Assembly: GCF_910592395.1 (NCBI RefSeq)
Contig: NC_088318.1
Coordinates: 7,686,349 to 7,750,348 of the forward strand
DNA from: Lineus longissimus
Lineage: Eukaryota; Nemertea; Pilidiophora; Heteronemertea; Lineidae
Direction: 5' to 3'
Length of the DNA stretch: 64,000 bases
The notes below the pieces were generated by a model. That model worked only from the letters and a program-made list of their open reading frames with translations, was not told where the DNA came from and ran no database searches. This document shows, one piece after another, positions 7,122-59,382 of this stretch. A program made the translations under genes and the position numbers. Within the stretch, counting starts at the first letter, position 1. Every line of letters starts with the position of its first letter.

Positions 7122-10100
7122 ATCCTAACAGTGGCACGTTTCTTAACTGCTAGGGCTATGAACTTGAAACTTTGTACACAGAATGCCCTAGGTCAGCTGA
7201 CCTTTGACACTGATTTTCGGTCCGATCTGATTCTCTGTTTGGCCACCAGGGGGCCAAATGTGGATATCTAAAAAGTGTGATATCTCGCTTATTAGTGACT
7301 TGTTTTCGATAAAACTTTTGTTGTAGGTACTCATAGCAAATATACATTTTATAATGTACGGGTTTTTAATTTGACCTTGTTTTCAAGGTCACAGAGGTCA
7401 TATGGCGTAAATTGGCCATTAGAGTGTAAACTATGGCACGTTTCTTAACCACTAAAGCTATGAACTTGAAACTTGGTACATATAACCCCCTATATCACAT
7501 AGCCTCTGGTGCTGAATTTTGGTTCGATCTGATTCCTAACTTTGCCACCAGGGGGCCAAAAGTGGAAATCTAAAAAGTGTGATATCTCGCTTATAAGTGA
7601 CTTGTTTTCGATAAAACTTTTGTTGTAGGTACTCATAGCAAATATACATTTTATATTTTACGGGTTTTCAATTTGACCTACTTTTCAAGGTCACAGAGGT
7701 CATATGGCGTAAATTGGCCATTAGAGTGTAAACTATGGCACGTTTCTTAACCACTAAAGCTATGAACTTGAAACTTGGTACATATAACCCCCTATATCAC
7801 ATAGCCTCTGGTGCTGAATTTTGGTTCGATCTGATTCCTAACTTTGCCACCAGGGGGCCAAAAGTGGAAATCTAAAAAGTGTGATATCTCGCTTATAAGT
7901 GACTTGTTTTCGATAAAATTTTTATGGTAGGTACTGTTAGGAAGAATACATCACATGTTATACGGGTTTTCAATTTGACCTACTTTTCAAGGTCACAGAA
8001 GTCATATGGCGTAAATTGGCTGTTAGAGTGTAAACTATGGCACGTTTCTTAACCAGTAAAGCTATGAACTTGAAACTTGGTGCATATAACCCCCTACATC
8101 AGATAACGTCTGATGTCGAATTTTGGCCTGATCTGATTCTTTATTCGGCCACCAGGGGGCCATAACGGAAAAAGGAAGAAGTGCAATATCTTGCTTATTT
8201 GAGTGAATTGTTTTCGATAAAATTTTATGGCAGGGACTCCTAGCAAGGATACATCACATTTCCTATGATTTTTGGATTTGACCTCCTTTTCTATGTCACA
8301 GAGGTCAAATGGCGTAAATTGACCGTTTGAGTGTAACTATGGCACGTTTCTTAACTGCTAAAGCTATGAACTTAAAAGTTGGTATATGTAACCCCCTACA
8401 TCAGATAATCTCTGACACCGAATTTTGGCCTGATCTGATTCTTGATTTGGCCACCAGGGGGTCAAAACTGAAAAAGTAGGACGTGCAATATCTCGCTTAT
8501 TAATGACTTTTTTTCGATGAATTTTTTATTGCAGGGACTCTTAGCAATCACACGATATTGATCATGTTGATGTCATAGACAATTATTGGTTGGATCATAA
8601 ACTGCCCTGTCTTATTACTTGACATCAATACACATCTAAAAAAAGTCTTCATGCCTGATTGTGTTCACCATATTCACCTCTAAACTAAGCATGATCCTGC
8701 CTACTAAAAGATGTATACGGTGAGCATAATGGCCCCTGGCCGTTTCATTTCAAGGTATTAACACATGACTCATCTCTCAAGTTCCTAAGTGCTCAAACAT
8801 ATCGATGATAATAATAATAGTAATGATAATAATAAATACCGGATATTATAGTGCCTTGTACAAGCTAAGCATGCTCCAAGGCACTTTACAATGGAGTTAG
8901 AAGCAAATATTTGGATTTAAAACAGTTTGACAGTGGTAAAACAGATTGATTAAAAAATTGAGTCTCTAAAACATAGATGGCACATTCAGAATATAAGTCT
9001 ATGTAGCTACCAACTAAAGGCTTCGCGGAACAAATGGGTTTTAAGTGATTGTCTGAAAGTTGACACACGCTCTAAGTCCTTCATGGCATCTGGAATCGCA
9101 TTAAAAAGTCTTGGTCCACTGACTCGAAATGATCGGTCTCCATTGTTCGTTTTGGTCCTTGGGACCATAAGTCTTGTTTTAGCTGACGATCTTAGTGACC
9201 GAGCTGGTGTACAGGACCTTATCATATCACGCAAGTAAAAGCTTGAAAAACCATTAGGATAATTTTGTATTTGATACGAAACCTCACCGGCAACCAGTGC
9301 AGCTGCTCCAAGACCGGAGTAATATGTTCTCTGCGTTTGGTACGCGTGATTATTCTGGCAGCCATATTCTGAACACGTTGGAGTCTGCCAATTGTTGCAT
9401 CTGGGAGACCATAAAAGAGCGAATTACAGTAGTCCAACCTGGATGTAACCAAACCATGCACAAGAAAGCGACATGCATCTTCTATCAAGCAGCGACGGAT
9501 TCTACCCACGTTGCGCAATTGCATATAGCAACATCTTGTAACACTGTTAATGTGAGCTTACATAGACAATGTCATGTCACTGCCAGCCAATCATGTTTCT
9601 TGTCACGTTATTTGCCTGATCTGCTATAAAACAAACAAACACATGTGGGCTTATATTCTTGAGGTTAAGAGTTCAATGTGTTTTTGTTGCGTTTTTAATG
9701 TATGGGTCATAGTGTTAAGATTTATGTGTTCTTGCTTGTGTTCATGATCACCCCTCGGATTATTTCAGCTGCAAAGTGTGGTCAGGAATTAATGGACTTC
9801 ATGAAGAGAAATGAAATCAACCCTCTCAAGAACTTTTTAGTGCCACTGGCACAGGTTAGTTAATTATCAATATCAAATCAAAATAACTTTATTGTTTCTT
9901 CTTTATTGTGCCAAGACCTTGTGCTCGAGAGCATTCAAGCCGGAGAAAATTATCGAGTGCAATCTGGATGACGAGGATTAGCCATGAGTGCAGTTTTTTT
10001 ATTTATCATACACCACAGATCCTCAGAAAAATCCAGAAAATGACGATTATTAGGTGACTTTTGCCATTTTTTTACCAAAAATCTCTCGTGATGCAATACG

Positions 10101-19100: not shown

Positions 19101-22100
19101 TGAAAATCGTTACACATTACGTCGACACCTGGGCAGATGATTGGGGACAAGAAACAAGCAAGATGAAAACCTGTGCCACCCTTTTCAGCCTATCTATAAA
19201 AAAAGGAGAACATCACACTCAAGATAGGAGACCAGGTCATTCCCCACCTTCATTGGCATCAAACATGACTCCAGGATGACATGGAAGACACAAGTCGAGT
19301 CAGTCAGAGACAGAGCAATCAAACGATTAGCCCTGATGAAGAAGCTTGCGGGAACCGGCTGGGGCGCTAATGCCAGGATACTCAAGCAGGTCTACACAGG
19401 ATCTGTAAGACCAGTTATGGAGTATGCTTCTCAAAGCTGGGCAACAACCGCCAAAACAAACCAAGCAAAACTCGACAAAGTACAGAACTTCTTCCTGAGG
19501 TCATTTCAAGATGGCCGCTGAGTAGTAACAGGTTGGGGTAGCTCCCCAACTAACCACAGTTTTTGCATGTTTAGAGTTTGGGAAGGAGGATAAGAGTGGG
19601 CAAGTGGGTTGATTAAGGTTGGCTGTTCGTGAGGAACTGTTCAGAATTCTTATTCTCTTGCGATTGTCTGATTGTGAGACTTTTCAGAAATCTTTCAAGA
19701 TCCAGCCCAAAAGGCCCATGGAGTATACATGTACATTATAGCCACAAGCCATACACACAGATTCATACAGTAGGCCTGTGTTCTGTTTCGGACATGGTGT
19801 GGTCAGACAACATGACATGGATGTGATGTAATACGATTGTGCACTCTACTTTTTATAAAGGATTATAATATAAACAATTGGAGAACAAGCTGTGGGCTGA
19901 CTATACCTCTGACAGCTGTAGCGATTTTCCTACTGGTTGACTCGGTGCCGTACCGGATGCTTCTGAGATATAGCACCATCCATAGAGTGTCACACTTGAT
20001 CATTGTCACAACCTGGTTAAAGACTTGTCTTGACAAGTCTAATATATGAATAGGATAACCCAAGTACTCTATAGATGATCCCAACGTACGTTATCCGAAG
20101 GGCGCCGCTACAAAGTCTGTGGGTAGGTATAAATGGCCAACAAAGTCATCAATTTAACGAAAACGTAGATTTCTTTTCATCTTTCTGTCTCATAAGGTAT
20201 TTTACATCGATAATGCTCATAACCTTGCTCAGCAATAAATTTCTGTAACATAATCTAACTGTTGTTTCATATATTTGCTTTCATATATAGTATAAGCCAT
20301 GGGTGGCCCGATGCCATTTAACAGTCGAACTCTATATTATAAGTATATTCACGACCCTTGTCAACTACACCAGCGGTGTCCCGACGGGGCGGAGCCCGCC
20401 GGGAGCCTGAGTACCAACCTTTCGGTTTGAGACACAAGTCAAGAGTGATTACGTAACAAAATGTTACGTCATTTATAGCTTCACGACGTCACGCCACATC
20501 CAATCACAAGGCTAGAATCACGTCACGTGACCCGAAATTTAGTCAATTTTTGAGAGGGAATGCCGAATATAATTCGAAACGGCAAGCATGCGGTTCTAAT
20601 AACCAGAAAACTGAAACATGGAATTGATCCCATATTGTTAGAAGAAAAGATAGGAAAGACTTCCATGGCTTTTTAATGGAAGAGTTTTGAGCACTTTTGA
20701 ACTAAACACAGAGCATCTAGGAAATGACGCCGCCGTGCGTAATGGTTAAGCCTTTATAAACGTAAATGGATGTGACGCCGCATTCTCAATTTATACCGAT
20801 ACGATCGCCTCGATAACTCTATAACGAAACATATAACCTTCAATCGAACCCATCCAAATCTTTCTAATGATTCTCCAGATCATATATACAAATTTTGATA
20901 ATGGTTATATGTCTAAATCTTACATATTTTAACTTCTAAAACAGGTGTCAGACACTGGAAGCTCGAGCGTCTAAGGTATTACGTCAGTAGAATAAGACGG
21001 CGGAATCGCACTTCATCTAGCTTTGTCATTAAATGTCTTAAACTCAAAGCACATAACCCTAAAATGGTTACATACTACTGGTAGTTGACATAAATAAGAA
21101 TTCGTATTCAGGATTTAGTGAGATTTTGATGTACGGTTTAGGAAATATTAAAGAATGACTGTTCAGACCGAAAGTGTACGTCGTTGTCAACGTAAAGTGA
21201 TTTGACGCGGATCACAGGCCGTAGAAGGCGTGACCCGTAAAACTTGATAAAAATAGTATCATAGATGAGTCATAACCCGAAAAAGACGTACACCATTGTC
21301 TCAACAATATCTCTGACTACAAAGTCGTAAAACATGAAAGAGTTCGTATGCGTAGGCTTGACGTTAATTTAATCGATATACGGTGGATTGTCCGAAAGAA
21401 CTGTCATCCAGGCGCGCGGAGAAGAGTCCGACGGCGCGTCAAAAGTGTCCTATCAAATCTCTGATTTCTTCATCAAACTTTCGATCATATCATGATTTGC
21501 ATAGCAAGAATATGAGGTGAGTGACCGCAAGTACATCATCTGGGCGTAATAAAGGATTTGGTGAGGAAGAAAATATGTTTTAGATGGAGTTTTGAAACGT
21601 AAACAAGTATAAAACCGTAGCGGTGTAATGTACATGAAATGTACACAAAGCATAACAATGGACCACACAATGTGATACACACAGAGACAAATACTGTTAC
21701 GTTATGTAAAGAAACGACCAGTTTGATGATTTATGGCACTCAACTCGGATTCAAAAGCTTATTTCTTATCTCAAATTAGAGTATCTGTATTTTCACATAC
21801 AACAAACCCAAACTAAGGCTCGAGTGATGGAGGTAGTAATCAAGGAGCAAAATTTAAAGGGGGAAAAGGGAATGACAGTCTTACTTGCTGTACTGGACAA
21901 ACAAAGGGGTGTTTCAGTGGCAGATGGAGACTATGGAAAGGAGGGTGGGAATAATTTTGAATTACACGTAAGAATTTACCAAGAATTCTACACAACCCCC
22001 AACTAAAATTCAAGCCGAGTTTGAATTTGATTATGGAAAAATTATTCAGAAGTGAGGTCGTTCGTTATCACTAACGGGAACGTGTTATTGCGCAGCGCGC

Positions 22101-25100
22101 CATGAGAACTCTAACGTAAGGGACAGGTTCCTACTGCATGGTGGTGCAGACTTCGTATTCCCATGTCTCCTCTGTTATCTTCTTGATACCGCCGGGTTTC
22201 TCTTCGGTGATCTTGCGCGTGTATCGCTTAGGGAGGACATTATCAAAGATGTTCGGGCGTAGTCCCGCGAACGGTGGTTTTGGCCCGTTCTTGGCGCTTA
22301 CTTTTGGCAGCGGCACCGATGGTCCTTTGACCGTTCTGGTCTTCCTGGTCTTTGGTGTAGACGGCTTGGCGTTCGGCTTGGCGTCTCCCTCGGTGGTGGT
22401 TTTACTGACGGTTTCCGCAGCCCTCTCGCTTATGTGTCCCAAAATCTCTAGAATATTGACATCATCGTCGGAGTCGGACTCTACAAAGTGTGTAGGCGAA
22501 GATACCGTTACTCGGATGGGGGAATCGAAGAGCGGAACCTCCGGTACGTCGTTGTGTACCATTCAGGGTGCTTTCACGGGCGGCTCCTTGGCGGGCAAGG
22601 TCTTCGGGGGATTTTCTCTCTATTCCGTCGTCGTGCCGGTCAACCTGTTGTGGCGACGCTCTTGTTCTTTCATTCTTTCGTCATGGTGCTTGGAGCTACG
22701 TTGTTTTTCCTTGATGGTTGCTGTGCGATGGTCTTCTGTTGCGCGCTGATCTTTCCCTTCATGGCGCACGCGTTCCTTTTCTTTGGAATAAGCTGAGGCG
22801 CGCTGATCTTCGGTGGCGTGATGATCTCTTTCCGACGGAACAGTACGTTCTAAACTTTCGCGTGGGGTAGATCGTCCCTCTGTACTGTTACTACGGTCCC
22901 GGCTCACCGACCTCGCTATCTGTTCCTTCCTCTTTTTGGCTTTGGGACATACTGTACGGTGGTCAACCAGCTTGATCGAGCTCCCGAAATGTCGTCCGCA
23001 GTCACGACACTCATACATCGAGCCGACGCTGCTCCATAATTTCTTCTTTATCATTGCGATACCGTCCTCCCTCTTCATCGCGGACCCGGCTCGACAACTC
23101 AACTCGTGCACCGCTCTGGACTTCTCCGTCCCAAAGACGCGATGGCACAGATGACATTCGTGTTTTCGTGGTCTGTTGAATACCATACTGAAAAGAAGGA
23201 AAATCATGGCTGAGTGATGTAACGTGAGGAAAAACGTGGCTTTTAGTAAATTAGGAGATGTTTATCGTGTCAGTTAGAATTCCCAGGTTTCTTCGAGGGT
23301 TACTTTCACTCCTTTCTCGGTAACCGTTTCGTAAATAAATGTCTGTATAGTGTCTTTAGATTCTGCCGATTCTTCTTCTTGATCTCTCCTGACAACGATT
23401 CGAATGTCCTCAGGGGGAGGCTGGAGGTGGTCCTTCATGGCGTGTTCCATGGCCTTTGGTCGTGTCGAAAATTCCTGTCCGCACTGATACGGGCATGGTG
23501 TTGCCGGCAACTTGTGTTCTTCTCTGGCGTGCATTTCAGCGCGCTCGGTTGTCGTAAACTTGATCTCCAAAAGGTATACGGGCAAGGAACGTGCGGCTTC
23601 TTCTGACATACTGTGATGTGCGTCTGCAACGATTTCTGCGTGGTGTAGACTTTCTTGCACAGATTGCATGGAAAATATTCGGTTGGCTTCTTGAACGGCA
23701 TGCTAAAGGAAGAGAAGAGATCGTTTTGAGAGATGTAGCAAATTTATTGTTCATATCTTTTAGGCGCGCGCGCAAATCTGTTCTTGGTCTCAGTCGGTCG
23801 GTCGGCGGTGTTTCTTCCGCAAAAGTTTGGTCATCATTCGGTTCCTCGGGGTCAATTTCTCTCGCTTCGATTTCTTTGACGGGCCAAGGTTTCGCATTTA
23901 TCCCTCGATACAGTTTCAACCTGTCGTAATGTAGTACTTTTGGAGTAGCGTTCCTGGTCTTTTGTACTCTGTATATGGTGTCCGAGAGTCTCTTGACGAC
24001 AAGGTATGGTCCAACCCAGTTACAACAGAGCTTGGTGGCTAGGCCTTTCTTGTATCTAGGATTATAGATCCAGACGAAGTCTCCCACTTTAAATGGCTTT
24101 CCGTGATGCCGCTGGTCATACGTTCTTTTCTGTCTCTGATGTTTAATCTCGATTTGTTCCCGGACATTCTCAAATGCGCTCTCTAGTCTAAGCTTGAGTT
24201 CTGTGGTATACTGCGAGATTTCGACTTCGTCCGTGTTGGGGTCTCCATATAATGTGTCTAGAGGTAAGGTCATCTGGCGACCGAACATCATAAAATACGG
24301 TGTCTCTTGAGTCGTACTGTGTACAGAAGATCGATAGGCCATCATAGCGAAGGGTAGTTGCTCATCCCAATCCTTCTGGTTTTTCTTTACCATCATTGCC
24401 AGGGAGTTCAAGAGAGTCCTATTGTGTCGTTCTATCATCCCGTCGGATTGTGGATGGACGGGCGTAGTCCTCGTCTTCTGGATATCTAAAATTCGACAGA
24501 CTTCCTTAACCAGATTCGACTCATAGTTGGTCCCTTGATCCGAATGGAGCTGCCTGAACGCTCCATACCTGCATATAAACTCCTTGACTATCTTTCTTGC
24601 TACGGTTATCGCTTCTTGATTAGGTAGGGCATATCCTTCGATCCATTTCGTGAAGTAGTCGCCAATTAAAATTATATACTTGTTCCGTCTGGCAGTGATT
24701 GGTAATGGGCCGAGGATGTCAGTGCTGATTCTTTCCATTGGCACACCAGTCAAATACGTCTGTAACTTGCCCCTATTACGATGCGGAGGAGTTTTCCTTG
24801 ACTCGCACTTATCGCATTTTTGACAGAATTCTGTGATAGTGTCTTTCATGTTCTTCCAATAGAACCTCGCCTTAACCTTTTCGTATGTCTTTTGTATACC
24901 AAGATGAGCCGCAGTTCTGGCCGAATGTAACTGACCAATTGCTTCTTCGCGGAACCTTTGTGGTAGCAGTGGCTTGAGTACCATGGTCCTACCGTCATCT
25001 GATTCGTACTGTTGACACAGAACACCATTCTTAAACTCCAATTGATCCCATAAGGACCAGTAGTGTTTATCAGCTTCTCCTTTCAACGAGATGGATTGCC

Positions 25101-28100
25101 AGGCCGGACGTACAGAGTGAGTTTCTTTCAACTGGAAGATCCATCGAAACTCCGAATCATTTCCTTGTGCTTCTCTAAGCTTTTCGTCAGTCCAGTCAAA
25201 GGCCTTTTCCATATGAATTTGTCCGATAAACCTAATTCCCTTCTTCTTAGGTTTCCTTCTCCCCTTTGCCGCTCTGGGACGTTGATACCAATGTTTGGGG
25301 ATCCACTTTATTTGTGTTGGTGCGGCGTCTTCCAATGGACCTGAGTGTTCTGTCTGTGATGACACCTCATTCGAAGAGTTCGATGGTGATACCTCGCACC
25401 CTACTGTTGATGATATCTGCCTTACACAAGGTGAATCATAGTTCTTCTTAATGCAGTAGTTGCATGGAATTCTTGACATGGCGTCGGCGTTTCCATGATG
25501 AAGACCTTTCCGGTGGACTATTTCAAAATCAAAGGTTCCTAAATACTCTATCATGCGTGCCAACTGTCCCTCAGGTTCTTTGAAGTTCATTAACCACTGC
25601 AAACAGCTGTGATCAGTTCTGACTGTGAATCTTTTCCCATATAGATAGTGACGATATTTCCTGACAAAAACCACCACAACCAACAATTCCCGCCTGGTGA
25701 CACAATAGTTCTTTTCGGATGGTGATAAAGTTTTGCTGGCGTATGAAATCACCTTTTCTTGTCCACCTTGCAGCTGATTGAGGACCGCCCCAATCGCATA
25801 TCCAGAGGCGTCTGTATCCAATATGAATTTCCCTTGGTTGTTTGGATATCCCAGTATGGGTGCTGTAATCAGCAATTCCTTTAGTCTGTTGAATGAGTCG
25901 GAGCATTCCTCGTCCCAAACGAATTCTTGGTCTGTCTTTGATAACTTGTATAAGGGTCTGGCTACATCTCCAAACGAGGGAATATACGCCTTGTAATACG
26001 TCACTAATCCTAGGAAAGATTTGACCTCTGTCAGACTCTCGGGGACCGGCCAGTTCTTGACGACTTCAATCTTTTCTGGGGATGTCCCCACGCCGTACTC
26101 AGTTATCAAATGTCCAAGGAACTCGACCTCTTTCTGCATCAGGTTGCACTTTTTGGGTTTTAACTTGATGCCGGCCTTTTCGAGCCGACTAAACACCTCG
26201 GACAAATTGGAGAGAGCATCTTCAAAATCGTTTCCCATGGTAATTACGTCGTCTAAATAGACTAAACACGCATGCCATTCCAGACCACTCAACAGCTGTT
26301 GCATAAGTCGGGAGAAGGTCGAACCGGCGTTTACCAATCCGAACGGCATCCTGCGAAACTGGAAATGTCCCAGTCTTGTGGTGAAAGCAGTTTTTTCCTT
26401 TGACGATTCTTCCATCTCCACGTTCCAATACGCGCTGGTAATGTCAAGGGCGCTAAACCACTTTGAACCTTGTAAACTGTCGAGTTGTGCATCGATCCGT
26501 TGTAAGCCACTGTTCGATCGTACCGTTACGCTATTCAGTCTTCTAAAATCAATACAAAAGCGCTGTGTCCGGTCTTTCTTTTCCACCAAAACGACACCAC
26601 TACTCCAAGGGCTGGTTGAATTTTCTATGATCCCCGATTCCAGCATTTCTTTCACTTGCTTATCTGCTTCATCTTGTTGGTGGATCGGTAATCTTCGTAA
26701 TGGCTGGCATAGTGGGGACGCATTCCCGGTGTCAATTTCATGTTTTATTCCAGTGGTTTTTCCAATATCCGTCTTCGTCTTAGAAAACAATGCACTATGT
26801 TTCTCAATCACTTCTTTCAACATCTTGGGTTGATCTCCCTTTAAGAATGTTGATCCACGTATAAACATATCCCTCAGTGACTCTGGTAAATCGTTCTTTA
26901 GTTCCTCTACATCAACTTTGTCCTGAGCATCACAATGATTTGGTGAATACTCGTCTTGTCCAACTTTTAACATATTTACATCACCGGTGTTCCCTTCGGT
27001 ACTGTTAGACAAACGGCCGGAGGTCCGAGGGGTGTAAGGCACAGCACCTACTAAACTTCGGAATTTCTGTCCTCCCGTTCTTCTCTCCTCAGCGGCATGC
27101 TTTACAGTTCTGAAGGTCGAATTTCCTGGCTCTTGCCGAGCCAGTGTAAGCTTGACTTCTTCTCCTCCTACCTCACTGGTAGTTTCTATTCTTTCCGCCT
27201 GCCTTGCGTCTGTTAGCCTTTCCAAACGGCCGGAGGTCCGAGGGGTGTAAGGCACAGCACCTACTAAACTTCGGAATTTCTGTCCTCCCGTTCTTCTCTC
27301 CTCAGCGGAATGAAAGGTGACCTTCTCTTTACGCGTATTCTCTGCGACGCTGTTATCTTGCGCTAATATATCTTCATTTTCTGGTTCCTTAAAGCTCACT
27401 CTTTTCCTCTTATTACTGGTAGGGGAGACTCGATCCCTGTTGTCGAGGTTCAGAAATTGCGCATGTCTGATGGGGTTAAGTATTCCTATTGTTGTGTCGA
27501 CTTCTAAAAGTATGGTATCATCTGTTACATTGACAATAGGGATCGGAATTAGTGAATTTTCAGAGTCCACGATTGCTTTTCCCACCATGCATCCCGCTTT
27601 TATGGATTTTGCATTTTTCACCGCGCCAGTTGGTTCAGCAATTGCCCATTTCCCTCGTATATGCGGTCTTGATTTCTTTGTTAGGACAACGATCTGTGAA
27701 CGTGGTGGTATGGTGGTTCTTTCTGAAATCACTAACCGACAGCACCTCCCTTTGCCTATCTTAGCAGATCCTAAATCACCGCATGTGACTTGTTCTCCAC
27801 GGCAAACAAGAGATCTGGCGGAAGGATATAATTCGCAACCAAAATACCTTATGAAATCCATCCCTAATAGTCCCTCAGCTTGTACATCTGCTACTATGAC
27901 GGTAAATTGGGTCTTTTCTTTCTGTAGAATCCCAATATCAACGTCACATTGTCCGTAAACTCGTAAAGGACTGTCATCGGCAGTGGTGAGTCGTATATCA
28001 GCCTTTTCTAAGTTAGGTCTTTCCGTGGGTCGAATTTGGAGGTATTTTTCGTGACTAAGGATTGTTACACACGATCCTGTATCAATTATAAATCTTACTC

Positions 28101-31100
28101 TTGTGTCATGGATTCTTCCAATAATGAACAAACCATCATCCGACACGGGCCCTATGCGCCGGATGGGGGTTGGTTCAGAGATCTTTGCTTTCTTTTTCAT
28201 CGAACTCGGGGGATGCTGTCGGGGATTGTTGCTTAAGACAGGCGCTCTCCCCTCTGCGTCGGCCTGAAATCGTTTTCCTGTCTTGGTTGCGGGCATTCCG
28301 AGCTGAAGTGGCCAAATTGGCCACAGTTCCAGCATTCAATTTCATTTCTTGGTTTCTTTCTCTTTTTGACAGCCAGTTGTGCCATTGTCTCTTGTAGTTT
28401 TTGCATACACTCTGTGTTGGTTTTCAAAATATCAGCGAGTGGGTTTTCGTCAACTCGTGGAGTTACGTTACGGCCCGGTTTCTTGGCTTGTCTCTCATCA
28501 GCGACACCTGCCCACTTTCGATAACCCGAATATTCTTCCGCCAATTGAATGGCCTCGTCTAGACAGCTGGGGCGGCCTTGCAAGATCATGACTCTTAGTT
28601 CGGCGTCCGGTATGGCCGCAATAAAATCCGCTTTGGCCAGTCTTTCCCTTGCTTCATAGCTGCTGGTGTCATATGCCAAAGCGCTTAATTTCTTGATTGC
28701 GCGTCCGTATTCTCTGAAACTCTCTTCGGGTTTCTTTTTTCTGTTCCTTAATTCCGCCAGATGAAGCTCTGACTGTTTGGATGGACCAAACTGACGCTCA
28801 AGGACCTGGACAAGGTTATCGTAATGCTCTAACTCATGATCGGGCAGATTGCATGCGACCTCTAGTGCGGCTCCTTTAAGGTGAGCGAAAAGTCTGTTAG
28901 CCATCTCGTTTTCCCATTTATTAATAGGGACGATCCTCTCAAACATCCTGTGCCAGACCCGCCAAGATTGGTCCACGCCATTATAACAGTCGATCTTTAC
29001 AGGCTTGTTCCATGACTTTGAATTGCCTGCACTTTGGCCGTCTCCGGCGTCATGACGTAAAGGGGAGTGGGATCCCGCCTATACTGGAATGTGACCTCCT
29101 CATCTTCGCTTTCTATTCCATGTTGTGCGTCAGCCTCAGCCATTGTTCCGTTTCGGCTTTGTCTTTGTCGGAAGTCGGTCTGTACGGGAAATTAGTGATG
29201 AGAGAACCGATAGTCCCGAGGGTAAAAGGACTCTTGCACGAGATCAGGACGTCGTCCGCAAACTGTAAGAAAACCTTCTTCTCTTTTGGCTTGGAAGGAG
29301 TCTTGTTACTGTAAAATTCAGCGTTCTTGCGGTATTTTACAATAGCCGTATTGATTTCGCACTTGTCTGTAACGTCGGTCGTGAGTAGGTAATCCTCCGC
29401 CAATATCTGTGTCATCACCTGGTCGAACTTGCGATGGCGCGTATGCTTGTATGCTAACTGGTGAAGCTTGTTACTGGTGGCTAAGAAGTTATAACTTGTA
29501 CCTTTCGGCTTTCCATGAAATCAAAATCAGAAAGATGGGTTAATTTCTAGTTTCAGGAGTCTCTACGTTTTCGTCTTGCGGTTGTTCCTCGGCGTCGTCT
29601 GTGGGTCGAACCATATTGTTACCTTATAGAAGAATAATAGTGATGATGACCATCCCACAGCTGTCACCAAATTGTAGCGATTTTCCTACTGGTTGACTCG
29701 GTGTCGTACCGGATGCTTCTGAGATATAGCACCATCCATAGAGTGTCACACTTGATCATTGTCACAACCTGGTTAAAGACTTGTCTTGACAAGTCTAATA
29801 TATGAATAGGATAACCCAAGTACTCTATAGATGATCCCAACGTACGTTATCCGAAGGGCGCCGCTACAAAGTCTGTGGGTAGGTATAAATGGCCAACAAA
29901 GTCATCAATTTAACGAAAACGTAGATTTCTTTTCATCTTTCTGTCTCATAAGGTATTTTACATCGATAATGCTCATAACCTTGCTCAGCAATAAATTCCT
30001 GTAACATAATCTAACTGTCGTTTCAAATATTTGCTTTCATATATAGTATAAGCCATGGGTGGCCCGATGCCATTTAACAGTCAAACTCTATATTATTAGT
30101 ATCACGACCCTTGTCAACTACACCAGCGGTGTCCCGACGGGGCGGAGCCCGCCGGGAGCCTGAGTACCAACCTTTCGGTTTGAGACACAAGTCAAGAGTG
30201 ATTACATAACAAAATGTTACGTCATTTATAGCTTCACGACGTCACGCCACATCCAATCACGAGGCTAGAATCACGTCACGTGACCCGAAATTTAGTCAAT
30301 TTTTGAGAGGGAATGCCGAATATAATTCGAAACGGCAGGCATGCGGTTCTAATAACCAGAAAACTGAAACATGGAATTGATCCCATATTGTTAGAAGAAA
30401 AGATAGGAAAGACTTCCATGGCTTTTTAATGGAAGAGTTTTGAGCACTTTTGAACTAAACACAGAGCATCTAGGAAATGACGCCGCCGTGCGTAATGGTT
30501 AAGCCTTTATAAACGTAAATGGATGTGACGCCGCATTCTCAATTTATACCGATACGATCGCCTCGATAACTCTATAACGAAACATATAACCTTCAATCGA
30601 ACCCATCCAAATCTTTCTAATGATTCTCCAGATCATATATACAAATTTTGATAATGGTTATATGTCTAAATCTTACATATTTTAACTTCTAAAACAGGTG
30701 TCAGACACTGGAAGCTCGAGCGTCTAAGGTATTACGTCAGTAGAATAAGACGGCGGAATCGCACTTCATCTAGCTTTGTCATTAAATGTCTTAAACTCAA
30801 AGCACATAACCCTAAAATGGTTACATACTACTGGTAGTTGACATAAATAAGAATTCGTATTCAGGATTTAGTGAGATTTTGATGTACGGTTTAGGAAATA
30901 TTAAAGAATGACTGTTCAGACCGAAAGTGTACGTCGTTGTCAACGTAAAGTGATTTGACGCGGATCACAGGCCGTAGAAGGTGTGACCCGTAAAACTTGA
31001 TAAAAATAGTATCATAGATGAGTCATAACCCGAAAAAGACGTACACCATTGTCTCAACAATATCTCTGACTACAAAGTCGTAAAACATGAAAGAGTTCGT

Positions 31101-34100
31101 ATGCGTAGGCTTGACGTTATTTCAATCGATATACGGTGGATTGTCCGAAAGAACTGTCATCCAGGCGCGCGGAGAAGAGTCCGACGGCGCGTCAAAAGTG
31201 TCCTATCAAATCTCTGATTTCTTCATCAAACTTTCGATCATATCATGATTTGCATAGCAAGAATATGAGGTGAGTGACCGCAAGTACATCATCTGGGCGT
31301 AATAAAGGATTTGGTGAGGAAGAAAATATGTTTTAGATGGAGTTTTGAAACGTAAACAAGTATAAAACCGTAGCGGTGTAATGTACACGAAATGTACACA
31401 AAGCATAACAATGGACCACACAATGTGATACACACAGAGACAAATACTGTTACGTTATGTAAAGAAACGACCAGTTTGATGATTTATGGCACTCAACTCG
31501 GATTCAAAAGCTTATTTCTTATCTCAAACTAGAGTATCTGTATTTTCACATACAACAAACCCAAACTAAGGCTCGAGTGATGGAGGTAGTAATCAAGGAG
31601 CAAAATTTAAAGGGGGAAAAGGGAATGACAGTCTTACTTGCTGTACCCTAATGGGGAAAACGCTTATTATCAAAACTTTTATTATATCACAGTTTCTTTA
31701 TACTACAAGCGCCATTCCAATGCCAGAAAAATACATCAAAGACTTGGAAACGTTAATTTATGACTTCTTATGGTCTGGCGGTAAACCAAAATTGAAAAGA
31801 ACCATAATAACAAAGAACCTCGATGAAGGCGGCATTAATATGCCTGATGTTAGATCGATGATCAAAACAAACCGAATAATTTGGATGAAAAGATTTCTGT
31901 TTTCAGAAGATCATGTGTGGAAAAAACTGTTTAGAAACTTTCTCAGTGACAGCAGTATTAACATCGACCTATTGATATGGGCTGATTATGATATTGCATC
32001 ACTCTTAAAAACTAAAAATTCAACGGATAAGAGCCCTGTATTTTACGTTGAAATTTAAAAAAATTTGTCAGACTGTCAATGTTCAAAAGCAAACTTCATT
32101 TGGTACAACAAAAGGTTAATCAAGAACAAAGGACTGTGTCTATACAAATATTTTCATAACTTGGGAATCGATTATATCCAAGTTCTCTATAATCCTGATG
32201 GAACAAAAATCTCGTTTGACCAAATTGAACTAAAAGGGCTCCCAAGAACAGAGTGGTTTAAGTGGCACACACTCACCAGCATAATTAAGAAGTCGTATCA
32301 AAATATACCTAAAATAACTGAAAAAGTTCTTAAAATCAACAACACCACTCTCGAAAAAGTAAGATCCAACCAAATCTACAAATATATAATGAAAAAGAAC
32401 TCACAACAAACAGATTATAATTTAAGAACAGCTAAGTATGTGGATCCAAAGGAACTTACAAAAACTAAAATTTTTGGAATATGTCATTAATCAATCACAG
32501 ATGTAAAGACAAGAAATTTCCAGTTTAGATTCCTACATGATATTTTAGTAAACAATTATTGGTTAAATAAATGGAAAATAAAAGATCTGGATTTGTGTAC
32601 TTTCTGTACTATTCATCAGGAAACAATCTATCATCTATTTTGGTCCTGTAGGTGTGTGCAAGTATTTTGGAACGACTTAATAGCTATGATGGAAAGACAC
32701 TTAACTGAAAAGATATGTCAAACAAATGTGTTCTATGGATCAAAAAATGCTTTATTCTCCACAGTGGTCTTCTGTGCGAAGCAGTTTATTTACAATTCCA
32801 AAAAAACAAATAAACAACCAACCTTCAGGAAGTTCTTGTATAACTTAAAATACCTTAAACTTAAAGAATTTCTGCTAGCTCGTAAAAATAACAAAATCGA
32901 AAAATATGAAGAAAAATGGGAACCATTAGCTCTGCTGGACGAATGTTAAAACGATTTCCCGATTTATGCGCCGCTTGGTGCCACCCAGGAACTACACTCA
33001 GGGTGGTTCCAAGTGGTCCATATTCGATACAAAATCTAGAAAAACATGATTAAAGGCGACTTTCCCTCCCGCTGGGTTATGCACCGCTTGGTACCACCCA
33101 GGAACTGCACTCAGGGTGGTTCCAAGTGGTCCATATTCGATACAAAATCTAGAAAAACATGATTAAAAACGACTTTCCCTCCCGCTGGTTTATGCACCGC
33201 TTGGTACCACCCGGGAACTACACTTAGGGTGGTTCCAGGTGGTCAATATTCGACAAACAAAATCTAGAACAACATGATTAAAGGCGACTTTCCCTCCCGC
33301 TGGGTTATGCACCGCTTGGTACCACCCAGGAACTGCACTCAGGGTGGTTCCAGGTGGTCCAGGCTTGATGGACAGGGGAAAAGCCCAACAAACCTAAAAT
33401 CTAAATACCTTGAACGAAAGGATTATGTTGGCTCTTTAAAGAAAAAAAAATGGAATCACTAGCTCTGCGGGATGAACAGACACAAACAGCTTTTTATGTA
33501 GTACTATCCAGGGGAAAGGGTAAGGGTGTGTGTGCGTGGGGGGGGGGGGGGGAGGGGGGAACGGTGTCCATGTTTAAAAAAAAAAAAAATTCAAATGTAC
33601 ACGTACCTGTTTTGTATGATATTCTGTATTGTGTGATACTTTTGAAAATAAAAATTATATAAAAAAAAAGAACTTCGGCCTGAGGATAATCCTAGGAGCT
33701 ATGAAGTCGACCCCGATTGCTGACATGGAAAGGACGGCTGGCATCGAACCCCTGGAACACAGGAGGAACCAGAAAATCCTCATCCATGGGGAGAAAATCA
33801 GACGCCTTCCAAGTCACCCTCTTCACCCCAAGCTTGAGGAAACTCCCAAGAACCGTCTAAAACACAAAAGTCAAAACCATCTGACTAAGAGTCTACAAGA
33901 TTCGGCTTCTGAATTGCTTCAGCCAGGAAATCCAGTTGAAAACCTGGTGCCAACAGCGTGGTCCCAGCAAGAGCTCCGAGTGGAAATCCAGCCTTCACTA
34001 ACTGACCTGAGAAGCAAGGGGATCCAACTACCGGATATCCAAAAAGCTCTCACCATGGAACATATTGACCGGCTATACCCACATGACAGATGGACACTAG

Positions 34101-37100: not shown

Positions 37101-40100
37101 ATGCCGAAAAACGCTGACCGACCGACCTTCCGACCTACCAACCCAAGGAGTTTCGTAGTTGAGTCACAGGTCTCATAAGTCAATGTGATAGATCTATATC
37201 CAATCCACGATAGCAGGTCGTGTGAAATGAAATTGTAAACAAGCGCAGGTGCGCTGGTCGAATGAAAACAAATGCATGTTGCGCGTTGCAGATGCATTGC
37301 ATCGGTCGAGACACTCGAGTAGAAAAACTACATTGCATAGATTAGGCCCAAATCATGTTTTTATATCCACCGACCATGCAGACAAAGCATATCTTTAGAG
37401 TATCGTTATCAGTTCCTTACGGCGTGGGCTCGTTTTCCCGGTATAATTGACTGGAGATGCTGCTGTCAGACACGTCGGACTCCATCACGTCCATTGCGCT
37501 GGGCACTACACAGATACGTGCGCTATAGAGAAGCGAAAGGGATACTGCATATGACGGTAGGTTGGCAGGTCAGTCAGTCGGTCGGTCGGTCGGTCGGTCG
37601 GTCGGTCGGCGTTTTTCCGGTTACCGTTTGAGTGTAACTAAGGCACGTATCTTAACCGCAAAAGCTATGAACTTGACTCCCTACGTCATGTTACTTGGAT
37701 ACAAAAAGTGCAATTATTGTTTCTTTTGACCTTTTTAATTCAGCTGACAAAGTCAGCTGAGCTAGTAGAATAGCTGTTCAAATGGTGTCCGTCCTGCAAT
37801 CCATCCATCCATCCATCCATCCATCCATCCATCCATCCATCCATCCATCCATCCATCTAGGGACCCATCTGTGGACAAAATTGGACATTTCATGACCGAG
37901 AAGCCTAACCACTTCGTTGACGGTGCTAAATTAGGAGTTGCCCAAGGTGAACTCAGAAACGAAAAATCAGCGTGATCCGACCTGTATTAAGAGAATGAGG
38001 TCATTTCGCGTTTAGATTTCTTCCCCTTTTTACCTCGGTCCACAGAGCAAATATTGTTTTCAAATGTGGCTGAATATTTTTTTATATTTTTTCATTTTTA
38101 CTTTTAATGGAATTAATATAGTTTTCACCGCCATTTGGCGCTGCAGGCACATTGACTGAATTTTGGCGATTTCAAATTTGGCGGTGGTGTGCTAGTAGTC
38201 TGTTGTACGTCTCTTGTACGACTTTACAGTTTTACATCAGTGCTGACCTCTACACTTAGTCATGCAAACTATTGTTATTGCAACATAATTATGTACCCAT
38301 GCTAATTCGTGTTCCGTTGGAGCATGCGCTCTGGTCTTCTTCCGATGAATAAAAATGTGTTATCTTTTGTAACTTATGGTTACGTAAATCCTTGATCATC
38401 TCTGGACAAGGTACGCACTGGTTGGTAATCCAGCAACGTATGTAAAGACTGGAACATGGTGGCAGCGCCAAACTAGTGTGTGGAAGAAGTATGAAGTGTA
38501 GAAAGGTAAAAACAGGAAAGAAAGTGAGAACCCCCTCGCCCCTGTGTAAAACGAAGTTTTGTGTACATCGAGTAGTACATTCCATCTTGCATAATGGAGC
38601 ACTTGCCAGCCCCTGCGACACTAGAAGTCGATGTCTCTTTTGAAGGGATCAACAAAATGGTAGAAACGTGGCGTATCTTCGGAGAAAGTTTTGAAGTGTA
38701 CATGGTTGCAACTGGTGGGTCAACCAAAGCCGTAGCAGTACAGCGAGCCGTACTCAAGCACCTACTTGGAGTAGATGGTTGGAAGATTTTCGACACATTT
38801 CCGGGAATCGAAGAAGGAACGACGAATGAAGCTATACTTGAAAAGTTCACGAGACACTTCGATGACCTAGCCGCGCCAAATAAAACATTCCAACGCCATG
38901 TTTTCCGAAATATAACACAGGGACAGCGACAGTTCAATGACTTTTTGAAAGAAGTCAAAGATACAGCAAAGAAATGTGACTTTGGTGACCGCATAAACCA
39001 AAATATCTGTAACCAGTTAATTTTCGGTATCGAAGATCAGACCTTGAAGAAAAAGATTCTGGCAACTAAGGATCTTGACGCAGATAGGGTAACAGCGATG
39101 TGTCGAACGCTTGAGATGGTAACTAAGCAGATTGACGAGATGGACAAGACAACGACTGATAAAGAAAAAGAAAAAGACGTGGATTCCGTGGCGACAGGAA
39201 ACAAGAAACGTGGAGCGTCATCATCACGTGGAGCATCGTCATCACGCGGACGAGCACAAAATCGCCAACCTCGAAGTGGAAATTCTGCGCAATAGGATGA
39301 CAAAAACTGTGATCGTTGTGGTCTTGTGCATCGTGTACCAAACAGGTGCCCCGCGTTTAAGAAAACCTGTGGTAAATGTGGCAAATTAAATCATTTTCGC
39401 GTGAAATTTAAAGTTGACACAGGGTCACAGGTGAACTTGATTCCTGCGCATGTGAATAAATCCTTGAAACTGAGTGCTAAATTAATGCGAGCTGATACTA
39501 AGTTATTCTCTTACACTGGAGAAAAGATTGCCCTCGTTGGAAAATGTTGAGTGAAAGTATGTGATAAAGAACTTGATTTCTTTGTTACTGAGGGTAACCG
39601 CACACCCATCCTGGGATTTCCTGCATTGTGCGATTTGAACGTTGTCACCATAAATACTGTTGACATTGAAAAGGAGGACAAACCTGATGAACATGAGTTG
39701 TACCGTGAATACCGTGATGTTTTCAGTACTAAGCTAGATGGACTGAATGCGCCAAAAGTTGAAATCAAGTTAAAGGACCCAAAGCCAAAACAAAATCCGC
39801 CGCGAAGAATTCCGTTTGCGCTGATAAAACGTATAAAACGTGAGTTGAACAAAATGCTGAAAGAAGGCATCATTTCTAAAGTTGAGAAAGCCACAGACTG
39901 GATAAATTCGATGGTCATGGTGGAAAAGCCAAATAAAGAGCTGAGAATTTGTTTAGATTCGAGAAACTTGAACAAATATATTGTGACTGATCATTTCAGA
40001 ATCCCGACACAAGAAGAACTTGCTTCAAAGTTATCTGGCTCAAAGTACTTTGCGAAACTAGACGCAAAAGCTTCTTTCTGGCAAATTTTGCTTGAGGAGG

Positions 40101-43100
40101 AAAGCTCGATCCTGACAACTTTTTCAACTCCATTCGGGAATTTCAAATTCAACAGGCTCCCATATGGACTTAAACTTAGCAGTCAGGTGTATCAGAAATA
40201 TATGACCGATATGTTCAGTCATTTAGTCGGTGTAGAAGTGTACATAGACGATATTTTGATTCATGCCGCAGACAAGGAAACGCTGAAGAAACGCGTGAGA
40301 GAAGTTCTGGAAGTATGCCGAGAAAAGAACTTGAAACTAAACTGGCAGAAATGTGTACTTGAAGAAACCGAAGTAAAGTACATAGGTCTTCTGTTTGATC
40401 AGCAGGGGATGAGGATTGATGAAGATAGGCTCAATGCCATCACACAGTTGAAAAATCCGAAATGCAAGCAAGAGTTGCAGAGATTCTTGGGAATGATAGC
40501 GTATGTGAGCAAATTCATACCCAACATGGCTGAGGAGACTCGACTTCTCAGGGACTTACTGAAAAAAGACGTGGCATTTGTGTTTGATGAGAATCATAAG
40601 AAAGCATTCCAGAGACTCAAAGAATTCTTAGTGATGTCACCGGTATTGACATATTTCGATCCGAAAAAGGATGTGACGTTTCATGTGATGCGTCGCGAGA
40701 TGGCGTAGGTTTTGTACTATTGCAAGGGGACCACCCAGTCGCGTATGGATCTCAATCCTTGACCCTGAGCCAAAAGAACTGGTCCCAAATAGAACTTGAA
40801 TTGCTCAGTTGTACAATTGTGACTCGCTCTACCAAAACTAGACGCTTGTCGCATCTGAACTCGACAGGTTGATATGGACTTGTTGTTCATTTCCCTATTG
40901 TAGACCTTTTGTGAAATCTATTACAAACTGATTTGGTCACATTTCACAAAATGTCTACAATAGGGAAATGAACAACAAGTCCGTATCAACCTGTCAAGTT
41001 CAGATGCGACAAACGCCTAGTTTTGGTAGAGCGGGTCACAAGTGCTTGTGAAAAGCTACATCAGTACGTGTACGGTCGTGATTTTCGTCTCGTCAATGAT
41101 CACAAACCGCTGCAGTATCTGTTTAAGAAACCACTTGCATCTTGCCCGCCGGGGGTACAACAGTTGATGTTGCGTCTTCAGAAATACAGTTTCGAGTATC
41201 AATGGGCTCCTGGAAAATCACTAAACATTGCAGATACTCTGTCAAGGGCCCCTCAGCCAAGCAAACCTGAGGACACTGAACTTGATCGCGAGTTGAACTA
41301 CCAAGTTCACATGATATGTGCAACCCTACCGTTTTCAGCAAAGAAACTTGCTTCATTTAGACATGAGGTACAATCTGATGCTGAGCTACAGCAGCTCAAA
41401 ACTACGATTGTGGCAGGATGGCCTCGCCACAAGAAGGATGTGCCATTCTGTGTGCGCCAGTATTGGCAATTCCGTGATGAACTCTCAGTCTGTGACAATC
41501 TATTATTACGTGGAGAACGTGTCATCATTCCGCAGAAATTCCGCAAAGAAATGCTTGATAGAATACATGAGGGACATCTTGGCCGGGACAAATGCCTATC
41601 CAGAGCCAAAGCTGCAATGTTCTGGGTTGGTATGGCGACAGAGATAAAAAATTGTGTTGAAAAATGTGCGATCTGTCTCAAATTTCAATCACGTCAACAG
41701 AAAGAACCGCTAATATCACATGCTAGGCCGAATCTTCCATGGAATAAACTGGGGACAGATGTGTTCACTTTCCTCAGTAAGAACTATCTTCTTGTTGTTG
41801 ACTATCATTCGAACTATTTTGAAACCGTGAAACTTGACGATATGACCGCTGAGAACCTTATAGATAAGCTGAAAGCTATGTTCGCCAGACTAGGAATTCC
41901 AGAAACTCTTGTCTCTGATAATGGAAGCAACTATGCCTGTGAAAAATTCTGCGATTTCACTGAAAACTGGGGAATAAACCATGTGACTGTCAGTCCTAGG
42001 TATCCAAAAGCCAATGGACTAGCTGAAAAGTATTGTGGCATTGCTAAGAAACTCATGAAAAAGGCGAAAGAAACCAAGATCGAGCCGCATATCGCGTTCA
42101 TGAACTATAGAGACACTCCTGTGATTGATGGTAAGTCACCAGCTGAACTCTTAATGGGTCGAAAGTTACGAACGCGTTTGCCGGTAAATGAGAAATGTCT
42201 GAAAACCACTCTACAGACAAAGACTGTTCAAAACGCGCGCGAGAAGAATGCCAAGACTCAAGCCCGCCATCACAATAAAACAGCGACAAGACCGCCTCTG
42301 GGTGATCTGAAGCCTGGAGACAAGGTTGTCTTTAGACACAATGGAGAATGGATCAAAGGGACAATTGTCAATTCGTGTGGTCCAAGATCATACCAAATCC
42401 AGTCTAAGGACAAGTCTTTCCGTCGAAATCGGGCAATGATCAAGCCTGACAAGACTGTAGTTGTCCGAAATCCGCCCAGAAATGAGGATTTGCTTACTAG
42501 AGCATTATTGGATGCTCACCCGACTCAGCCTGACACGCCTGGTACTGCAATCAATAACGCATCGTCGGCAGTACACCTAGATCCACCTGCATCACCAGAA
42601 TCTGCTAGTGAAACGTCGATCCAGAGGACGCCTGCAGAACGAACACCGATATCGCCAGGAAAACAGACGCCGTTGAAAGCAGCACCCAAGACACCAGTTG
42701 TTCAAGTTCAGCATGGATCGAACACAAGTGCGGAGCAAGTTACAACGAGATCGGGATGTGTTGTGAAAGCGCCCAGACATTTTGACGATTTTGTGCACGC
42801 AGTCACTAGTGTTCAGGATTCGATTGTGAGCAAAATCTGACTCAAATCATTCGTAGTGCACATATAGCCTGAAGAATGGGTGTAGGCGGATCGCTGCTCA
42901 TTTTTCATGTTTTGTGTCACACTGTATTTAGTGACTAAGACTTGATTTTGTGTCATGCTGTATATTGACATATTTGTGTTCTGTGCTACAATGTTGTGAA
43001 ATTGACAGACTCTCATTATTGTTCATGTTCTAAGTAATTTTCTGTTTAGACTAAAGTTGACCAAGTTTGGTACAACATTCACGTTTAGAATCTTAGGTAA

Positions 43101-58749: not shown

Positions 58750-59193
58750 TTAGTGAACTTTGAACTGAATGTCTGATTCTGGAGGTCTGCACTTGGGTCC
58801 AGCTGTTTGCTGTGAAGAGCTTGGTACAGACTCATTTTCATCAAAAGGTGTTGCTCTGGTGTGAAATTTGTCTATGAATTCCATGAGGTCTCCAGATTGT
58901 TCTTCATTCAGTGAATCTACCCAGAAATCATTTATTTCAATATCTGCATCTTTATAGACACTGCCATGTTCTTTTAACCACTTCAGTGCTTTTAACACTT
59001 TGGTTGGCCGGATGTTTTCAACAAATTCATTTCGTTTGTACAGTAATTTACGACGCAATTTAACAGGCACAGTTTCCATATCAGAGAGATTTCTTGGAAG
59101 TGATTGGACGGTTTTGCAGACATCAATGGGAACATTTACAACATTACCTCGTACCATCTTTTGTCCTCGAACTGGAAGTTCTCTCATCTGCAT
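58750..59193 (-). CDS. Helitron-like protein fragment (DUF6570-type)
   Basis: 147 open codons with LPVRGQKMVRGNVVNVPIDV, SLPRNLSDMETVPVKLRRK and IRPTKVLKALKWLKEHG. Ends in a divergent Ser/Gln/Pro-rich tail and a stop. A remnant, not a complete protein. Confidence 0.75.
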   Translation of the reverse strand: MQMRELPVRGQKMVRGNVVNVPIDVCKTVQSLPRNLSDMETVPVKLRRKLLYKRNEFVENIRPTKVLKALKWLKEHGSVYKDADIEINDFWVDSLNEEQSGDLMEFIDKFHTRATPFDENESVPSSSQQTAGPKCRPPESDIQFKVH

Positions 59194-59382
59194 GAATGGT
59201 ATCCTTTATGATATCAATCTCTCTTCAAGTTGGTACAAGTCAAGCTCAGGTGGCTTTGGAACAAACCCCATGTTATTGGCATCACGGCATGTTCTACAAA
59301 TCCATTCACAGTCGTTCACAGATTTATAGTCTGTGAGACATTCCTTTAGGAGTTCTGACTGTTTAAACTCTGTTTGCATTTT

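What the first reader, a model, noticed from the sequence alone, without database searches (positions are those of the whole stretch)
22131..23702. Gypsy retrotransposon with two paralogous zinc-finger genes in the env position, each behind its own splice acceptor
Between integrase and the 3' LTR, where retroviruses and errantiviruses carry env, this element has two genes. Both begin with a short M-x-F-(K/N)-(K/R)-P leader and a C-x2-C-x12-H-x3-C finger, and both end with a (I/L)(T/E)EETWE(F/Y) motif, so they look like a duplicated pair. Each ATG lies exactly one base after a strong pyrimidine tract plus AG. This predicts two spliced subgenomic RNAs encoding nucleic-acid-binding proteins rather than an envelope. 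I know of no described family with this pair, but I cannot search.
Basis: partly seen in the sequence, partly recalled or inferred. Interest (0 to 1): 0.9.

Follow-up and report, generated by a model that had tools for sequence, protein, structure and literature searches.

The report
Zinc-finger genes replacing retrotransposon envelope gene
A group of virus-like jumping genes in an animal genome carries two or three small related zinc-finger genes where retroviruses keep their envelope gene, often behind a strong RNA-splicing signal, which suggests that the elements make their own nuclear control proteins.

Summary
In the window copy the two best acceptor-like sites among 610 AGs of the internal region lie one base before the ATGs of zinc-finger genes A and B. 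Both genes are broken here. Gene A is open in the C5 sister copy, and A and B are both open in three diverged relatives of the same genome, L023, L030 and L032 (pol 66-75% identical). The top two acceptor sites are also those of A and B in three other elements. Seven of ten codon comparisons show synonymous excess. Gene A models as three beta-beta-alpha fingers. A and B share a C-terminal tail, and a third gene of the same plan exists in one subfamily. No transmembrane stretch was found. Eight paper searches listed no family with this pair. Best reading: a Metaviridae clade with tandem spliced nuclear regulators, comparable in role to CERV of Cer1. Splicing, binding and function are untested; the donor is not conserved, and one family without finger genes also has a strong acceptor-like site before an ATG.

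The parts
29673..31646 (-). 5' LTR, lacking about the first 100 bases of the full 2.08-kb LTR
   Evidence: 99.14% identical to the 3' LTR over 1977 columns (14 mismatches)
29652..29669 (-). probable primer-binding site (TGGTGACAGC..GTGGGAT), conserved in the L034 element; tRNA not identified
29617..29625 (-). candidate splice donor AAG|GTAACA (last exon base 29623)
   Evidence: best donor-like site of the leader (rank 5 of 356 GTs in the internal region); present in the C5 copy; no comparable site in the L034 leader
29113..29520 (-). open frame upstream of gag, function unknown
   Evidence: about the last 110 residues kept open in C5; no Pfam match
28233..29143 (-). gag (Retrotrans_gag, CCHC knuckle); split over two frames in this copy, one frame in C5
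23536..28335 (-). pol frame, 1599 aa: protease, RT, RNase H, integrase; its last part runs into gene A in the window copy, not in C5 or C10
23703..23722 (-). pyrimidine tract + AG, acceptor-like site of gene A (rank 1 of 610 AGs)
23274..23701 (-). gene A: C2HC/C2H2 fingers (three in the C5 protein) and C-terminal ..LEETWEF tail; one frame break in this copy, open in C5 (142 aa)
   Evidence: fold by the relative
23188..23207 (-). pyrimidine tract + AG, acceptor-like site of gene B (rank 2 of 610 AGs)
22131..23186 (-). gene B: two C2HC fingers, basic cluster KAKKRK, linker, C-terminal YTRKITE..EETWEY tail; two in-frame stops in this copy
21993..22006 (-). probable G-rich priming tract just before the 3' LTR (TTAGTTGGGGGTTG)
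   Evidence: like motif in L023
19917..21992 (-). 3' LTR (TGTAG...CTACA)

Best explanation
The element belongs to a clade of Gypsy (Metaviridae) LTR retrotransposons that carry tandem paralogous zinc-finger genes in place of env. Each of the two main genes is most likely expressed from its own spliced subgenomic RNA: a donor near the 5' end is joined to a strong acceptor just before the gene, and the gene's own ATG is used. The products are soluble, probably nuclear proteins with 2-3 C2H2/C2HC fingers at the N terminus, a flexible linker and a short shared C-terminal tail. They most likely act on the element's own nucleic acid, either by helping unspliced genomic RNA out of the nucleus, as CERV does for Cer1, or by controlling transcription from the long LTRs. 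Shown: the gene pair, its recurrence, acceptor-like sites, a predicted fold class, and synonymous excess in most codon comparisons. Inferred: splicing, nuclear location, target and role.
For: Ranks 1 and 2 of 610 AGs are the acceptors of A and B. The top two sites are also those of A and B in L023 (551 AGs), L029 (330) and L028 (202), and in L032 (260; close relative of L023). Five gene A proteins share 17 invariant columns, among them 8 Cys/His finger positions and the final E-x-W; five B proteins keep NxFDxVxP..YTRxITE..PxG....EE..E. Synonymous excess at an assumed neutral fraction of 0.224: B window/C6 27 syn, 43 nonsyn, P 0.0017; B L023/L024 14/15, P 0.0019; B L023/L028 first part 25/26, P 3e-5; A L023/L025 14/26, P 0.048. 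Pol, A and B frames are all open in L032. AlphaFold model of A of L032: three beta-beta-alpha fingers, pLDDT 74-87; best PDB matches CTCF fingers, E 9e-5. No 19-residue stretch above Kyte-Doolittle 1.0 in 11 proteins. CERV of Cer1 sits in the same place, comes from a spliced mRNA and is needed for genomic RNA export (PMC10309623, abstract and passages).
Against: No RNA evidence. B is broken in 4 of 4 copies of the window's own subfamily, the window included. The donor is not conserved. In L030 gene 0's site ranks 31 of 190 and gene A's nearest AGs (within 60 nt) rank 20 and 29. L025 has no such tract before its A frame, and none of the seven listed top sites of L031 lies before B's start. The family of L038 has no finger gene in the 3.2 kb read, yet its best site (13.5, rank 1 of 96) lies directly before an ATG whose frame stops after six codons, so such a site alone does not prove a gene. 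Three of ten codon comparisons show no significant excess (B window/C5 0.13, A window/C5 0.13, gene 0 0.17); with a neutral fraction of 0.25 five of ten do not. What the fingers bind is unknown. Only one animal genome could be searched.
Confidence: 0.58

Rival explanations
1. The zinc-finger proteins steer integration or protect the element from silencing (chromatin tether, or decoy for a host repressor) rather than controlling its own RNA or LTR.
For: Gene A has a finger array of the kind found in DNA-binding proteins; the tail could bind integrase or a host factor (inference).
Against: Nothing measured. Site bias was not tested beyond two target-site duplications, which differ (CGCC, probable ACTC).
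Confidence: 0.2
2. The genes are real but translated without splicing (reinitiation, read-through of pol, or an internal promoter); the pyrimidine tracts are incidental or serve another purpose.
For: No RNA data; donor not conserved; L030 lacks strong acceptors for two of three genes; L038 has a strong site before an ATG without a gene; in the window copy pol runs into A.
Against: The acceptors of A and B are the two top-ranked AGs in four elements: window, L023, L029 and L028; pol stops before the acceptor in C5 and C10 and in L032.
Confidence: 0.13
3. Captured host zinc-finger fragments that hitch-hike without function.
For: Many weaker matches to gene A (E 1.7e-4 and above) cover mainly the finger region; the one I read, on C8, lies in a long frame with 8 fingers, like a host zinc-finger gene.
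Against: Gene A matches at E<=1.3e-7 in 9 places. All 9 lie in stretches that also hold B sequence, and 7 of the 9 stretches hold gag or pol of this clade (not L024 and L025). Genes persist across pol divergence with synonymous excess in most comparisons.
Confidence: 0.06
4. An envelope or fusogen of an unusual kind.
For: Position only.
Against: No stretch of transmembrane hydropathy in 11 proteins (signal peptides were not tested); predicted zinc-finger fold for A.
Confidence: 0.02

Closest known systems
Cer1 CERV (C. elegans Gypsy/Ty3 element; PMC10309623)
   Same: Gypsy element; extra protein in env position, not an envelope; from a spliced mRNA, one verified acceptor being TTTCAG; nuclear; needed for export of unspliced genomic RNA (abstract and passages).
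   Different: CERV is one five-exon protein, partly in the frame of the polyprotein; here two or three separate zinc-finger genes. No sequence comparison with CERV was made.
Non-envelope ORF3 genes of bdelloid rotifer LTR elements (Vesta, Juno; PMC5408684)
   Same: Extra genes in the ORF3/env place of LTR elements, stated there to be typically expressed from spliced messages (abstract and passages).
   Different: Those named are GDSL esterase/lipase, DEDDy exonuclease, TM proteins and a paramyxovirus-like env; 'zinc finger' does not occur in that paper by the search listing.
Errantiviruses / insect ERVs (PMC12992720)
   Same: Metaviridae with a third ORF after pol.
   Different: Third ORF there is an envelope gene, env-F (passages).
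MDG1-group sORF1/sORF2 (PMC11952523)
   Same: Small accessory ORFs in Metaviridae; sORF1 is subnuclear.
   Different: Upstream of gag (sORF2 after pol in some Lepidoptera), no evidence of splicing there, sORF2 is FAST-like (passages).
Regulatory genes of complex retroviruses (Tat/Rev, Tax/Rex, foamy Tas; recalled, no call)
   Same: Small nuclear regulators made from spliced or internally started RNAs.
   Different: No homology was tested; those viruses also have env.

Membership tests
Metaviridae / Ty3-Gypsy LTR retrotransposon | pol order PR-RT-RH-IN with Gypsy-type domains | tested here: met
   Pfam; 2962 related proteins at E<=0.001
Metaviridae / Ty3-Gypsy LTR retrotransposon | LTRs TG..CA and 4-6 bp target-site duplication | tested here: met
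   C5 copy TGTAG..CTACA with CGCC; C11:7193 element with probable ACTC. The window copy itself shows no duplication
Errantivirus / enveloped retrovirus | env with a transmembrane anchor | tested here: not met
   highest 19-residue hydropathy 0.96 in 11 proteins
Errantivirus / enveloped retrovirus | signal peptide on the env-position protein | not tested
   no signal-peptide program was run
Troyka (PMC12440569) | 3-bp TSD and CG..CG ends | tested here: not met
C2H2 / C2HC zinc-finger protein | C-x2-4-C-x12-H-x3-4-H/C and beta-beta-alpha fold | tested here: met
   (fold predicted for A only); Pfam finger matches below the gathering score except PF12171 for B (22.8 against 22.6)
CERV-like spliced env-position regulator (by analogy only) | Spliced mRNA from the element | not testable with these tools
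   acceptor-like sites only
CERV-like spliced env-position regulator (by analogy only) | Promotes nuclear export of genomic RNA | not testable with these tools
   none

The most novel reading that the evidence does not exclude
An independently evolved complex-retrovirus strategy inside Metaviridae: a tandem array of two to three paralogous zinc-finger regulators, made from their own spliced subgenomic RNAs, one freeing unspliced genomic RNA for export and another driving the 2-4 kb LTRs, arisen by duplication from a single env-position zinc-finger gene of the kind still seen in two more distant Gypsy families of the same genome.
Probability: 0.3. Interest if true: 0.85.

Novelty: new variant of a known kind. 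Interest (0 to 1): 0.64.

Why it matters
Env-position genes of Gypsy elements are often taken for envelopes or left as unknown ORFs. A conserved, duplicated zinc-finger cassette with strong acceptors would show that LTR retrotransposons without env can evolve multi-gene, spliced regulatory programmes like those of complex retroviruses. It makes testable how such elements export unspliced RNA and why their LTRs are so long. The shared tail and the finger signature give a marker for finding the clade in other animals.

Tried and rejected
Repair of gene B by an alternative middle frame was considered and dropped after the C5 copy showed one frame through that part. Host capture: disfavoured. Envelope/fusogen: disfavoured. 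Troyka membership: not met. OVEX1 as precedent: its ORF3 is described as possibly env-related with a membrane segment (passages). Protein database searches with A (142-aa frame; 7 candidates) and B (213-aa frame; 75 candidates) found nothing at E<=10, while pol found 2962 relatives at E<=0.001; so the database holds related elements but no recognised A or B, within the limits of word-based sensitivity and of protein length. The frame used for A begins out of frame with A's start in the window copy. Scans of viral contigs with B, the A alignment and the B alignment: no relative. Homology of the single zinc-finger genes of two distant families to A, B or 0 by their tails: 0 of 20 comparisons below P 0.05. 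Single-sequence model of A was poor (mean pLDDT 56). Host species was not identified.

Full report
WHAT IS THERE. The window lies in a 391-Mb, 30-contig genome (G000:C11:7686349-7750348). The host species was not identified; that it is an animal is my inference. The element lies on the minus strand between LTRs at 29673-31646 and 19917-21992. The LTRs are 99.14% identical over 1977 columns. The sister copy on C5 (13721604-13732642) shows the full LTR as 2082 bp, TGTAG...CTACA, with a CGCC target duplication and 98.5% LTR identity. The window's 5' LTR lacks the first ~100 bases and shows no duplication, so its 5' end has probably been lost. Gag and pol carry the standard domains. The pol frame of 1599 aa is unbroken, but its last part reads into gene A in this copy. 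In C5 and C10 pol stops just upstream of the A acceptor.

THE TWO GENES. Both are broken in the window copy: A by one frame break, B by two in-frame stops. One search found three further copies of the same subfamily. C5 has A open and B broken. C6 keeps only the end of A and has B broken. C10 has the start of A fused to B, with B broken. So B is broken in 4 of 4 copies.

ACCEPTORS. The score (pyrimidine content of 17 nt, base -3, AG exclusion) has weights of my own choosing after the recalled general consensus. By it the AGs one base before the A and B start codons rank 1 and 2 of 610 in the internal region (12.6, 11.7; next 7.0). Of 129 ATGs in the region, 2 have an AG scoring at least 7.5 within 5 nt: A and B. 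In relatives the stretches searched differ in length. The two top sites are those of B and A in L023 (551 AGs; B's lies 31 nt before its ATG), L029 (330; A's lead is small, 7.6 against 7.1) and L028 (202; its B site is the same sequence as in L023), and in L032 (260; near copy of L023). In L030, B is rank 1 of 190, but gene 0 is rank 31 and gene A has no good site. L025 has no such tract before its A frame, and in L031 none of the seven listed top sites of 493 stands before B's start. As an unplanned control, the L038 family, with no finger gene in 3.2 kb, has a site scoring 13.5 (rank 1 of 96) directly before an ATG whose frame stops after six codons; so a strong site before an ATG can occur without a gene. 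The best leader donor, AAG|GTAACA at 29623, is also in C5. The L034 leader has no good donor, and its best donors lie inside its 4.2-kb LTR. The donor is unresolved.

RELATIVES IN THE SAME GENOME. Searching B's C-terminal part gave 17 matches. Gene A of L032 gave 65 matches at E<=1, of which 9 at E<=1.3e-7. Pol gave 47 matches, with 29 of 2637 first-look candidates scored; counts are lower bounds. Among the 9 distinct elements with pol identity of 57% or more, A and B stand after pol in 6: window, C11:7193407, C5:13726295, C1:11879915, C13:8176843 and C11:5739558. C14:10762495 keeps tail remnants only. C12:5331927 and C3:10837028 showed none in the 3.4 and 4.0 kb fetched, but their pol matches stop before the integrase end, so they are undecided. 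C11:5739558 (L030) carries a third gene of the same plan before A, and so does C17:1793493 (L027), where no pol of this clade was seen in the 9.9 kb fetched. In L032 pol (1602 aa), A (175 aa) and B (437 aa) are all open; A and B are also both open in L023 and L030.

SELECTION. Nei-Gojobori counts in script: B window/C6 dS 0.126, dN 0.056; window/C10 0.147, 0.068; window/C5 0.041, 0.023; A window/C5 0.023, 0.003 on three differences. A L023/L025 0.147, 0.069; B L023/L024 0.047, 0.015; B L023/L028 0.293, 0.081 and 0.141, 0.072; B L030/L027 0.06, 0.029; gene 0 L030/L027 0.041, 0.019. More distant pairs were saturated. Ten comparisons were tested for synonymous excess: with an assumed neutral fraction of 0.224 seven have P<0.05 and three do not (gene 0; B window/C5; A window/C5); with 0.25, five of ten do. 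The comparisons share sequences and are not independent, and no multiple-test correction was made. A window/C6 and sub-regions of B, and B C6/C10, were also computed but not tested; A against C6 is misaligned outside its short shared end. Within B, window/C5 over the last part gave dN 0.024 and dS 0.022, that is, no constraint.

PROTEINS. Gene A of L032, modelled on six sequences, gives three beta-beta-alpha fingers (residues 12-33, 40-64, 69-94; pLDDT 74-87), a disordered linker and C-terminal strands at 142-173 (pLDDT about 63); pTM is 0.31. Foldseek ranks CTCF fingers first (E 9e-5), and sequence search lists C2H2 proteins (best E 3e-7). Pfam finger matches are below the gathering score except one; B of L023 has no Pfam match at E<=0.1. 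The tails of A and B align by profile over 16 columns (probability 90%, E 1.7e-6 for a single target). In shuffle tests 13 of 16 A-B tail pairs and 7 of 8 pairs of gene 0 with A or B have P<0.05, uncorrected (the P of 0_L030 with each partner is printed there). So A, B and 0 are best read as duplicates. None of 11 proteins has a membrane stretch; the first part of B is basic (+16) with KAKKRK. An ATG at 23207 would add a short hydrophobic leader to B, but it is encoded by the pyrimidine tract itself.

WIDER SPREAD. Two more distant Gypsy families in this genome (pol match 44%, RT 47-50% identical) have one zinc-finger gene after pol. C20/C4 (160 aa) has its acceptor-like site at rank 1 of 137 AGs in the first 1.7 kb, four bases before the ATG. 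C9/C5:19588 (177 aa) has its site at rank 2 of 150, two bases before the ATG, with a modest score of 6.7. A C1 copy of the first family lacks the gene. Two other families (C3:20068811, C10:10967789) showed none in about 3 kb. The tails of the single genes do not match A, B or 0 (0 of 20), so common descent is open. In an RT tree the A/B clade, with metagenome proteins P0001 and P0004, is supported 97/100; the single-gene families are unresolved. What follows pol in P0001 and P0004 could not be seen.

DATABASES AND PRINT. A and B found no protein at E<=10, although pol found 2962. Eight answered paper searches listed no paper that names this pair in title or abstract start; several lists were cut at 12 to 25 rows. 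I saw passages of PMC10309623, PMC11952523, PMC12992720, PMC5408684, PMC6431247 and PMC2717909, and the outline, abstract and passages of PMC12440569. Most subscription papers and Repbase were not searchable.

MECHANISM. Strong acceptors in an RNA that must also leave the nucleus unspliced create the export problem that CERV solves for Cer1. Element-encoded nuclear finger proteins made from those same spliced RNAs would be a natural solution. The long LTRs (2.1 and 4.2 kb) leave room for the alternative of LTR control. I put the broad nuclear-regulator reading at 0.58 and cannot separate export from transcription.

Noticed in passing
window 27010-27099 and 27223-27312: A 90-bp direct repeat (99%) in the pol frame between protease and RT; the C5 copy aligns as if it had a single unit, so it may be a recent duplication that keeps the frame.
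   Followed up: partly
window 29113-29520 and L034 about 8460-8540: An open frame upstream of gag carries FADDVLI; the leader of the diverged L034 element has YADDILI in a short frame (shuffle P 0.02). No Pfam match.
   Followed up: partly
L004 (C10:11773755-11777447): A copy in which the start of gene A, with its acceptor, is fused to the first finger of gene B, as expected from recombination between the paralogues.
   Followed up: partly
L034/L023/L035 (C11:7188076-7204224): LTRs of about 4.18 kb (99% identical) with probable target duplication ACTC, very long for a Gypsy element.
   Followed up: partly
L031 (C11:10121500-10131400): Gene B sequence follows an unrelated upstream frame (MATPQQLTQPARR...) near B's usual acceptor, and no pol of this clade was matched in the stretch: a possible chimera with another element.
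   Followed up: no
window 38576-42840 (+): A second, very different Gypsy-like element (RNase H and integrase domains; RT about 30% identical to the first).
   Followed up: no
window 47373-48740 (-): 455-aa open frame with DDE_1 and HTH_Tnp_Tc5 domains, a DNA transposase.
   Followed up: no
window 58750-59205 (-): Fragment with DUF6570, a domain I recall from Helitron-type elements.
   Followed up: no
window 7132-8547 and 32964-33361: Tandem arrays of 302-bp (4.7 copies) and 113-bp (3.5 copies) units.
   Followed up: no
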